24,469 bases of DNA, taken from positions 1 through 24,469 of IMG/VR virus record IMGVR_UViG_3300025264_000109; one strand, 5' to 3'. The position numbers and the translations under genes are program-made. Shown in pieces: positions 19,694 to 24,469 of the stretch (positions within the stretch are counted from its first letter, which is position 1; every line of letters begins with the position of its first letter). Source of the stretch: a virus. The notes below the pieces were generated by a model. The model did no database searches, was not told the DNA's origin, and saw only the letters and a program-made list of their open reading frames with translations.

Positions 19694-19719
19694 AACTGTC
19701 TAACAAGGAGGTTAAAATG
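19685..19719 (+). promoter_or_regulatory. Possible hairpin covering Hsp20 start and ribosome binding site
   Basis: CATTTTA (19685-19691) is fully complementary to TAAAATG (19713-19719), which contains the Hsp20 start codon. AAGGAGG (19705-19711) lies mostly in the loop. A further two pairs (19695-19696 with 19711-19712) could form after a bulge. The stem is A+U-rich, so it would melt easily. It shares bases with the terminator 3' arm and the two folds exclude each other. It is a candidate only. Confidence 0.35.
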
Positions 19720-20169
19720 ACATTCGATAAATTACCATCAATCTTTAAACAACTTAGACCTGTCTCAATCGGGTTCGATAATCTTTTCGATCACTTCGAA
19801 AACTTTTTCGATGAGTACGACAATGTTCGGTCTTCGCTGACAGCTAACTTTCCTTTTTATAATATTGTAAAGAAGGAAAATAATAAGTTCGATATTGAAG
19901 TAGCTCTTGCAGGCTATGACAAGAAGGACATTGCTGTAGAATATGCAGATAGTATACTAACTATAAAATCTGTTAAGGAAACTAAATCCGATAAAGAAAA
20001 AGACGGAGTGATTCATCAAGGAATTGCTAAGAGATCTTTTACAAAAGCGTTCACTGTTTCTGATGACGTAGAAATCAAAGGTGCTGAGTTAAAAAACGGA
20101 TTATTAAAAATATCTTTAGAAAAGATTATTCCTGAAGGCAAAAAGCCAAAAACTATTGCAATAAAATAA
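19717..20169 (+). CDS. Hsp20/alpha-crystallin small heat-shock protein
   Basis: 150 residues, the usual size. The alpha-crystallin domain lies at about 50-140: NIVKKENNKFDIEVALAGYD, then KKDIAVEYADSILTIKSVKE, then HQGIAKRSFTKAFTVSDDVE and GAELKNGLLKISLEK. The terminal KTIAIK gives the I-x-I motif (147-149) that docks neighbouring subunits. These ATP-independent chaperones hold unfolding proteins in the cytoplasm, and phage versions (known in cyanophages) may assist virion assembly or stressed replication. AAGGAGG at 19705-19711 is the strongest ribosome binding site in the window. It is a one-gene unit between a terminator-like hairpin and the convergent helicase. Confidence is high. Confidence 0.92.
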   Translation: MTFDKLPSIFKQLRPVSIGFDNLFDHFENFFDEYDNVRSSLTANFPFYNIVKKENNKFDIEVALAGYDKKDIAVEYADSILTIKSVKETKSDKEKDGVIHQGIAKRSFTKAFTVSDDVEIKGAELKNGLLKISLEKIIPEGKKPKTIAIK

Positions 20170-22652: not shown

Positions 22653-23408
22653 ATGCCTCAAGAACAAAGAGACATAACAATCAAGAAACAAGCACAAGTA
22701 CCATCCACTTCATTATTTGAAGCGGATGCGAAGTTAGGTTTAGAGAATATGGACCAAGATGATTTGGCTCTACCCTTTCTAAAACTACTTCAAAACAGTT
22801 CTGACGAAACGAAGAAAAAACATTCTGCGTATGTCGACGGAGCTGAACCAGGAATGTTCTATAATACAGTTACTAAAAAACTGTACGATGGAGCAAAAGG
22901 CATCGAAGTCATTCCATGCTTTTATAAACTCACATTTCCTGAGTGGGCACCATTTGAAAGAAGAGAAGGACGTCCGGCATCACCGGATAGAGGTCCTGAA
23001 ATTCTTTCTCAAACAAAGAAGGATGCATCAGGTAAAGATGTCCTTCAAAATGGTAACATCATTATTAAAACAGCAAATCATTTTGTCATTATTCAAACGG
23101 ATAGTGGATCTGATAAAGCCTTAATAGCGATGAAGTCTACTCAACTTAAAGTGAGTCGAGGCTGGAACTCGATGATGAAAAGTATCAGTGAAAAAGGTAA
23201 AAATGGTACTTTCAATCCGCCATCATTTAGTCACATCTATCAGCTACGGTCTGTAGAAATATCAGGAAATTTTACTTGGTATGGCTACGCTGTAAAACTT
23301 TTAAGAAAAGTAGATAATGTAGATCTTTATCAGCACGCTAAAGCTTTTCACACTTCAATAAAAAGTGGACAAGGCAAAGCAGCAGAGAAAGACGACGTAA
23401 ATTTCTAA
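22653..23408 (+). CDS. Putative DNA-metabolism protein (ssDNA-binding/recombination context)
   Basis: 251 residues. LALPFLKLLQNSSDETKKKH, then GAEPGMFYNTVTKKLYDGAK, then GIEVIPCFYKLTFPEWAPFE is a series I associate with a widespread phage early protein of unknown or single-strand-binding-like role. The middle (FVIIQTDSGSDKALIAMKST, LKVSRGWNSMMKSI) and the end (VEISGNFTWYGYAVKLLRKV) are mixed beta and helix with several aromatic and basic residues. The final residues KAAEKDDVNF are acidic, a feature of some ssDNA-binding proteins. AAGGAG at 22638-22643 lies nine bases upstream. Its position before a primase is the main support; it should not be labelled ssb on this evidence. Confidence 0.5.
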   Translation: MPQEQRDITIKKQAQVPSTSLFEADAKLGLENMDQDDLALPFLKLLQNSSDETKKKHSAYVDGAEPGMFYNTVTKKLYDGAKGIEVIPCFYKLTFPEWAPFERREGRPASPDRGPEILSQTKKDASGKDVLQNGNIIIKTANHFVIIQTDSGSDKALIAMKSTQLKVSRGWNSMMKSISEKGKNGTFNPPSFSHIYQLRSVEISGNFTWYGYAVKLLRKVDNVDLYQHAKAFHTSIKSGQGKAAEKDDVNF

Positions 23409-23410
23409 GT

Positions 23411-23465
23411 TTCACCTAGGGTGAATCTAGGGGCGGTAGCGCGAGAGTTAAGCCGCCCCGCTTAA
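23411..23465 (+). ncRNA. Structured intergenic element: hairpin plus pseudoknot-capable stems
   Basis: TTCACC (23411-23416) and GGTGAA (23420-23425) form a perfect six-pair stem with a TAG loop. GGGGCGG (23430-23436) is the exact inverse complement of CCGCCCC (23453-23459). TTAAGC (23448-23453) and GCTTAA (23460-23465) form another perfect stem whose six-base loop CGCCCC is complementary to GGGGCG. The last two can form a pseudoknot or switch. No T tract follows, so a plain terminator is unlikely. The element is strikingly G+C-rich for this genome and lies just before the primase start. Confidence 0.55.
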
Positions 23466-23473
23466 AGGGATGT

Positions 23474-24469
23474 ATGATAGATGAATTTATAAAATTATTT
23501 TCTGGACTCAAAGAAAACTTTGGTCAAATTAAATTAAAAGCCAAAGTAGAGTTTGACAAAGAAAGAAATAAAATTAAACCAGAGTATATCTGGTCTAAAC
23601 AAGCTGTCCTTCCTCTACATTATCAACAACATATCGACGGAAAAATATCAATAGGAATCCAACCTTGTACGAAAGAGGGCAAAGCATCTTTTGGCTGTAT
23701 TGACGTAGATCCTGAGAATTACAAAGATTTTAATATTGTTCTTCTGCTATCCTATATAGAGAAATATAAACTTCCACTGATTCCATGCCGATCTAAAAGT
23801 GGCGGCTTACATATTTATTTATTTTTGACCGAAGCCATTAGCGCTCAAACTATGCGTGATGCCTTAGCCTCTATACTTTTACCTCTCGAATTAAAAAGAA
23901 CTACAGAAATTTATCCCAAACAAATTGAATTAGAACCTGATGAACAGGGAAATATGTCAGGAAATTTTATCAATCTTCCTTACTTTAATCATACCAACAC
24001 TAAACGTTATGCACTAGATAAAAACAATAGTGCTTTATCGCTAGAACAATTTATTAAAATAGCTATAGCTTCCAGGGTTTCCCCAGAAGAACTAGACCAA
24101 CTCATCATACGCGTTGACACAGAAGTTTTAATGGGAGGAGATCCAGAATTTGAGGATGGTCCACCTTGTTTACAAAGACTTTCTAAAACAAAAATAGGAG
24201 ATGGAAGAGATCGTTTTATGTATAACTACATGGTCTTTGCCAAGAAAAAATATAAAGAAGACTGGCCTGATAAAGTTAACGAAGCTAATAAATATTTTTC
24301 AGTTCCTTGGCCTCTTAAAAAAATTAACGACAAAATAAAATATTGGACTAAAGAAACAGCCAATCATACTTGTAATGATGAAGTCATTTCCAAAGTATGT
24401 ATGAAACATATTTGTGTTAAAAGAGCTTTTGGAATTAAATCAGATACCACTTCCGCTTTCCCTCTTTTC
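23474..24469 (+). CDS. Archaeo-eukaryotic-type primase (AEP), C-terminus outside window
   Basis: The frame opens at ATG 23474 and runs 332 codons to the window end without a stop. An ATG at 23470 is in another frame and stops at once. GCIDVDPEN gives the Asp77-x-Asp79 metal-binding pair, and CRSKSGGLHIYLFL gives the SGGLH motif with His113. TTEIYPKQIELEPDEQGNMS followed by GNFINLPYF is the typical third region of AEP primases of the TOTE/PrimPol-like group. These enzymes make primers, or polymerise, on single-stranded DNA. Further domains, perhaps a helicase or PriCT, may lie beyond the edge; residues after about 215 look helical. A purine run (AAAGGGA 23464-23470) is a plausible ribosome binding site. 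The call is strong. Confidence 0.85.
   Translation, partial: MIDEFIKLFSGLKENFGQIKLKAKVEFDKERNKIKPEYIWSKQAVLPLHYQQHIDGKISIGIQPCTKEGKASFGCIDVDPENYKDFNIVLLLSYIEKYKLPLIPCRSKSGGLHIYLFLTEAISAQTMRDALASILLPLELKRTTEIYPKQIELEPDEQGNMSGNFINLPYFNHTNTKRYALDKNNSALSLEQFIKIAIASRVSPEELDQLIIRVDTEVLMGGDPEFEDGPPCLQRLSKTKIGDGRDRFMYNYMVFAKKKYKEDWPDKVNEANKYFSVPWPLKKINDKIKYWTKETANHTCNDEVISKVCMKHICVKRAFGIKSDTTSAFPLF

What the first reader, a model, noticed from the sequence alone, without database searches (positions are those of the whole stretch)
23411..23465. G+C-rich RNA element able to form a pseudoknot before the primase
A six-pair hairpin with a TAG loop is followed by two stems that overlap at one base: GGGGCGG with CCGCCCC, and TTAAGC with GCTTAA, whose loop CGCCCC is the exact partner of GGGGCG. 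The set fits an H-type pseudoknot or a two-state switch. There is no T tract, and the composition contrasts with the surroundings. It could control primase translation, be a processing site, or mark a replication start (the primase gene follows directly).
Basis: seen in the sequence. Interest (0 to 1): 0.62.

Follow-up and report, generated by a model that had tools for sequence, protein, structure and literature searches.

The report
Shared hairpin of SAR11 phages and hosts
Between two replication genes of this marine phage lies a small RNA hairpin whose tip is almost unchanged in several unrelated phage groups that infect SAR11, the ocean's most abundant bacteria, and in SAR11 genomes themselves; it probably marks or protects the end of the upstream gene's message, but its exact function is untested.

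Summary
The functional unit is a 30-nt hairpin (23430-23459): a G+C-rich stem of 7-8 pairs, a three-pair non-Watson-Crick internal loop, one covarying pair, an invariant G-U pair and a GNRA loop. The pseudoknot cannot form as drawn (no nucleotides to cross a 7-bp stem), and its second stem is not conserved. The hairpin lies in every complete gap between the Gp34-like gene and the primase in about 230 related loci. Its outer stem covaries strongly and its cap hardly changes. It is not tied to the primase: the same cap follows the major capsid gene (HTVC024P, Skadi, Greip), Hsp20 (HTVC103P) or the same Gp34-like gene before another protein. It also follows phosphomannomutase in SAR11 hosts, with one match in nearly all of 130 of 247 genomes, against 1 of 398 sampled Pseudomonadota genomes. 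Some phage and host copies carry a U-tract and look like intrinsic terminators; the window copy does not. No Rfam family matches. Best reading: a 3'-end hairpin (terminator, processing or stabilising signal) of the upstream mRNA, with a conserved cap that a SAR11 factor may read. Control of primase translation and a replication origin are not supported.

The parts
22653..23408 (+). Upstream gene: Pam3_Gp34-like protein (251 aa), function not established; perhaps ssDNA-binding
   Evidence: PF23977 E 5e-61; phrog_2402; one relative annotated SSB; weak OB-fold/SSB/RPA matches only, none below E 0.001
23411..23425 (+). Hairpin 1 (TTCACC-TAG-GGTGAA), 2 nt after the stop codon; position conserved, sequence variable
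23430..23459 (+). Hairpin 2, the conserved element: outer stem 23430-23437/23452-23459, cap 23438-23451
   Evidence: covariation; R1 model hit 42.3 bits; fold; relatives
23438..23451 (+). Apical cap AGC-G-C-GAGA-G-U-UAA: GNRA loop, closing pair C-G (G-C in many relatives), invariant G-U pair, three non-Watson-Crick pairs
   Evidence: pair tables
23448..23465 (+).
23466..23469 (+). Probable ribosome-binding site (AGGG) of the primase, outside hairpin 2
   Evidence: conserved A-G-G-G 4-7 nt before ATG in this clade, absent in the HTVC027P clade
23474..24469 (+). Downstream gene: AEP-type primase (start only, runs off window)
   Evidence: PF22548 E 4.5e-13; phrog_21866 E 8e-90

Best explanation
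The element is an RNA hairpin at the 3' end of the upstream cistron, in the sense direction of that transcript. It acts on the mRNA as a 3'-end signal: where a U-tract follows, as an intrinsic terminator; where none follows, as here, as a block to 3' exonucleases and/or a processing point. That would let the upstream gene (Gp34-like protein, capsid, Hsp20, host phosphomannomutase) be expressed at a level different from the next gene. The conserved cap (GNRA loop, one pair, G-U, three non-Watson-Crick pairs) is either an unusually stable folding nucleus or is read by a SAR11 factor that phages exploit. Shown: structure, covariation, cap conservation, sense orientation, contexts, and presence in hosts and phages. 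Inferred: every step of the function.
For: Covariation 0/500 shuffles. In 250 of 250 viral loci found by the cap sequence with only S flanks, the flanks are complementary although the pattern did not ask for it. Contexts: gp34|AEP primase 163, gp34|other protein 18, capsid|67-aa gene 21, capsid-neighbour gene|67-aa gene 17, Hsp20 3. The hairpin stays behind gp34 when a gene is inserted before the primase (L336, L362). About 10% of 250 distinct copies have 4 or more U right after the stem (L393 has U7, L526 U6, L515 U5). SAR11 hosts: one match each in nearly all of 130 of 247 genomes, 64-97 nt after phosphomannomutase where that gene was identified, 15 of 40 with a T run of 5 or more. The order was confirmed by SAM-V in 5 of 10 genomes, 0 of 14 controls. 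At the same capsid position other phages carry plain or UUCG hairpins (ZP6, Baldr, Hodr, HTVC028P, MEP301), so a hairpin as such is the common need.
Against: The window copy and most relatives lack a U-tract. One copy per genome and a 14-nt cap conserved across phage families is more than a generic terminator or exonuclease block needs. HTVC010P has no such hairpin at the capsid position. L347 has a copy antisense to its neighbouring genes. No transcript 3'-end data were available.
Confidence: 0.5

Rival explanations
1. The cap is a specific binding site for a dedicated SAR11 (or phage) RNA-binding protein or antisense RNA, and the phage copies are operators or decoys of a host regulatory circuit centred on the 3' UTR of phosphomannomutase.
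For: Cap conserved while outer stems change fully; one copy per genome in hosts and phages; hosts show further conserved blocks upstream of the hairpin; the hairpin is kept with or without a U-tract.
Against: No protein or partner RNA identified; the phage contexts share no obvious regulation; stems and flanks differ too much for a shared long target.
Confidence: 0.3
2. A translational operator or initiation-region structure that controls primase synthesis.
For: In gp34|primase phages the hairpin ends mostly 6-16 nt before the next ATG; autogenous operators upstream of replication genes exist in T4 (gp32, gp43; PMC3014915).
Against: Same hairpin before other genes (67-aa gene, second class of gene after gp34, inserted genes) and in host 3' regions, often with no start codon close by. 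In gp34|primase phages the SD is outside it, or absent in the HTVC027P clade.
Confidence: 0.08
3. A DNA element: single-strand initiation site for the AEP primase or replication origin.
For: One copy per genome; adjacency to an AEP primase in many phages; + strand G-T allowed while A-C is rare in the stem.
Against: Found far from any primase gene and in SAR11 chromosomes after phosphomannomutase; always sense to the upstream gene where one was identified, some with terminator U-tracts.
Confidence: 0.04
4. A plain intrinsic terminator whose loop sequence is neutral.
For: U-tract in some phage lineages and in 15 of 40 host copies.
Against: No U-tract here; the cap is conserved across unrelated families, not neutral.
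Confidence: 0.08

Closest known systems
Phage T4 intercistronic hairpins with C(UUCG)G loops (own knowledge; source paper not held)
   Same: A specially stable loop reused in hairpins between phage genes, some of them terminators
Rho-independent (intrinsic) terminators
   Same: G+C-rich stem after a gene; some members have U5-U9 right after the stem
   Different: Most members including the window copy lack the U-tract; the loop is strongly conserved
REP/BIME stem-loops such as malE-malF of E. coli (own knowledge)
   Same: Intercistronic hairpin proposed to keep the upstream mRNA part abundant
   Different: Not repeated in the genome; different sequence and fold of the tip
Candidate SAR11 RNA upstream of rhtB (Meyer et al. 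2009, PMC2704228, Fig. 3A)
   Same: Single hairpin with conserved loop and bulge in Cand. Pelagibacter ubique; about half followed by U6-9
   Different: Reported next to rhtB/proC, here next to phosphomannomutase; described as bulged, here the loop is symmetric; sequences could not be compared

Membership tests
H-type pseudoknot | Loop 3 long enough to cross stem 1 | tested here: not met
   0 nt between 23459 and 23460 with a 7-bp stem 1 (geometry)
H-type pseudoknot | Both stems conserved | tested here: not met
   second stem of 5 or more pairs in 8 of 92 relatives, 2.7 expected
Intrinsic terminator | G+C-rich hairpin at the 3' side of a gene | tested here: met
Intrinsic terminator | U-tract after the stem | tested here: not met
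   absent in window; present in 26 of 250 distinct copies at 4 or more U and in 15 of 40 hosts at 5 or more
Intrinsic terminator | Transcripts end there | not testable with these tools
   no Term-seq or RNA-seq coverage available
Known Rfam family | Match to a covariance model | tested here: not met
   no match at gathering score, none at E 10 or below for the element, none at E 1 or below in host loci
Primase translational operator | Linked to the regulated gene | tested here: not met
   same element before unrelated genes
Meyer 2009 rhtB motif | Same sequence and structure | not testable with these tools
   figure and supplement not readable
GNRA tetraloop | GNRA loop on a covarying closing pair | tested here: met
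   GAGA in 67 of 72, GAAA in 2 of 72 patterned sequences (one of the 72 is a chance hit); C-G/G-C exchange in 26 of 63

The most novel reading that the evidence does not exclude
A new class of RNA element in the SAR11 virus-host system: a 14-nt non-canonical hairpin cap kept in about one copy per genome by the hosts (3' UTR of phosphomannomutase) and by at least three unrelated phage lineages, because a dedicated SAR11 factor reads it; phages have captured or mimicked a host 3'-UTR signal.
Probability: 0.35. Interest if true: 0.8.

Novelty: new variant of a known kind. Interest (0 to 1): 0.6.

Why it matters
SAR11 and its phages are among the most abundant biological entities on Earth, yet how phage mRNA is handled in SAR11 is barely known. 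A small RNA motif shared by host and unrelated phages, absent from Rfam, gives a defined handle: it can be looked for in existing infection transcriptomes (HTVC027P in HTCC1062) and used as bait for a SAR11 RNA-binding factor.

Tried and rejected
Rfam at gathering and permissive thresholds: nothing. Nucleotide search of annotated phages with the gap region: no hit, hence protein-anchored and cap-anchored searches. Pseudoknot and two-state switch: rejected on geometry, energy and lack of conservation. SD sequestration by the CCC strand: possible in the window clade, but the HTVC027P clade has no SD, so not general. Primase operator and origin: rejected as general functions by the other contexts. 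SAR11 host genomes were first missed: genome contigs pattern scan (7 mostly chance hits), 16S probe pattern and SAM-V in small genomes gave none; found through GC content and size of sampled genomes. Gp34 structure: pLDDT 72, PDB matches weak (best E 0.027, top ones mostly RPA/SSB), so SSB identity is only suggested.

Full report
OBSERVATION. The 65-nt gap 23409-23473 lies between a Pam3_Gp34-like gene (22653-23408, PF23977) and an AEP-type primase (from 23474, PF22548/phrog_21866). No terminator-like site is found on the + strand and no Rfam family matches.

PSEUDOKNOT. In the proposed H-type knot, stem 1 (7 bp) and stem 2 are joined by a third loop of zero nucleotides, which cannot span stem 1. 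Opening part of stem 1 would cost G-C pairs for a weak A-U-rich stem (inference from the energies). In 92 distinct relatives the second stem reaches 5 or more pairs in only 8 (2.7 expected after shuffling). It is a feature of the window's closest relatives only.

CONSERVATION. Searches of IMG/VR with the primase, the Gp34-like protein and the HTVC027P homologue gave about 230 loci. Every complete gap carries the hairpin; the few loci without a pattern match are cut off by the contig end or have a shifted stem (checked). On an ungapped alignment of 63 distinct 30-mers, 99.8% of cells pair, 8 of 9 pairs have double changes (120 cells against 30 in shuffles), covariation score 0.640 against 0.186 +/- 0.016, 0/500; sliding the partners by 1-3 positions destroys this. 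The counts include related sequences, so they are not independent events. The cap varies little: GAGA in 67 of 72, rarely GAAA (GNRA), closing pair C-G or G-C, next pair G-U in all (the pattern asked for it, but no complete gap lacked it), then three positions that almost never form Watson-Crick pairs, the second mostly A-G or G-A.

CULTURED PHAGES AND OTHER CONTEXTS. Pelagibacter phage HTVC027P, whose primase is 42% identical, has the same hairpin before its primase. Phages with the same gene pair outside this group have plain G+C-rich hairpins (023Pt_psg01, DSL-LC04, Pan1, YuA) or no gap (HTVC023P). A cap-only pattern search then showed other contexts: after gp34 but before another protein of about 480-490 aa without a Pfam match; after gp34 with a gene inserted before the primase; after the major capsid gene or the small gene beside it (HTVC024P, HTVC100P, Greip, HTVC203P, HTVC035P, Skadi phages); after Hsp20 (HTVC103P, probably HTVC104P); and after a 77-79-aa gene of unknown function. 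In all 250 loci the arms are complementary, although the patterns only asked for S bases (239 in register with 6 or more pairs, 11 with a one-base offset seen by inspection). Complete genomes of HTVC027P, HTVC024P and HTVC103P have one match each. At the capsid position, relatives carry other hairpins: UUCG plus U-tract in Alteromonas phage ZP6, plain hairpins in Baldr, Hodr, HTVC028P and MEP301; HTVC010P has none. A hairpin at this junction is thus a general need, and the cap is one solution used in SAR11 phages.

U-TRACTS. Of 250 distinct copies, 26 have 4 or more T directly after the stem. Some gp34 lineages and L393 (U7), L515 (U5) and L526 (U6) would pass as intrinsic terminators. The window copy and most others would not.

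HOSTS. With the covariance model R1, 130 of 247 genomes of one order of 1.0-1.5 Mb genomes match, nearly all with exactly one match. Controls: 1 of 398 genomes sampled across the phylum at E 0.1 and 1 of 217 in another order at E 1. The order is taken as Pelagibacterales because 5 of 10 genomes carry the SAM-V riboswitch and none of 14 controls does. The host copy lies 64-97 nt after a phosphoglucomutase/phosphomannomutase gene where the upstream ORF could be identified. Its cap is GGAG-G-GAGA-C-UGAA or a close variant; 15 of 40 copies have a T run of 5 or more after the stem, and further blocks upstream are conserved. Phage locus L199 carries the same host-type cap.

INTERPRETATION. The constant features are: sense orientation to the upstream gene wherever one was identified, position just after it, and the cap. 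The downstream gene, the SD and the U-tract vary. This fits an mRNA 3'-end signal and not a control of the primase or an origin. The upstream genes include ones expected to be highly expressed (capsid; possibly an ssDNA-binding protein), which suits an intercistronic stabiliser or partial terminator; expression was not measured here. HTVC027P is transcribed by host RNA polymerase throughout (PMC12753301), so a host-read signal is plausible. Why the cap is so conserved remains open: extra stability or a binding partner.

LITERATURE. No paper in the searched library contains the cap sequence in this sense. A 2009 screen of Cand. Pelagibacter ubique (PMC2704228) reports a less supported single-hairpin motif next to rhtB, about half with U6-9; its sequence could not be read, so identity is neither shown nor excluded.

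LIMITS. No transcript data could be examined.

Noticed in passing
SAR11 host loci L558-L577, L581-L600: Conserved blocks (TTCAACTAT..AAGTGTT and GAATC) precede the host hairpin after phosphomannomutase, suggesting a longer conserved 3' UTR or a small RNA.
   Followed up: partly
L222:857-886 and L238:3802-3831: Cap variant GCTAGCGT in place of GCGAGAGT, breaking the GNRA rule but keeping closing pair and G-U.
   Followed up: no
L373:5287-5316: A Blastocatellia MAG holds one perfect copy (8-bp stem, same 14-nt cap) in apparently non-coding DNA; one copy in that genome.
   Followed up: partly
L347:6490-6517: A viral contig with a T4-like primase-type gene carries the hairpin antisense to its neighbouring genes.
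   Followed up: partly
L213, L222-L247, between hairpin 1 and hairpin 2: A second short conserved string CTTGC(A/G)AGA lies just before hairpin 2 in one HTVC027P-related clade.
   Followed up: no
window 22653-23408: Pam3_Gp34-like protein: model pLDDT 72, weak fold matches, the top ones mostly RPA/SSB OB-folds; widespread in unrelated phages (500 records), mostly annotated hypothetical.
   Followed up: partly
L254, L262, L269 downstream of the hairpin: A protein family of about 480-490 aa without Pfam match replaces the AEP primase after gp34.
   Followed up: no
window 19717-20169: An Hsp20-like gene in this phage; in HTVC103P the conserved hairpin follows Hsp20, but here the gap after it has no such cap.
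   Followed up: yes
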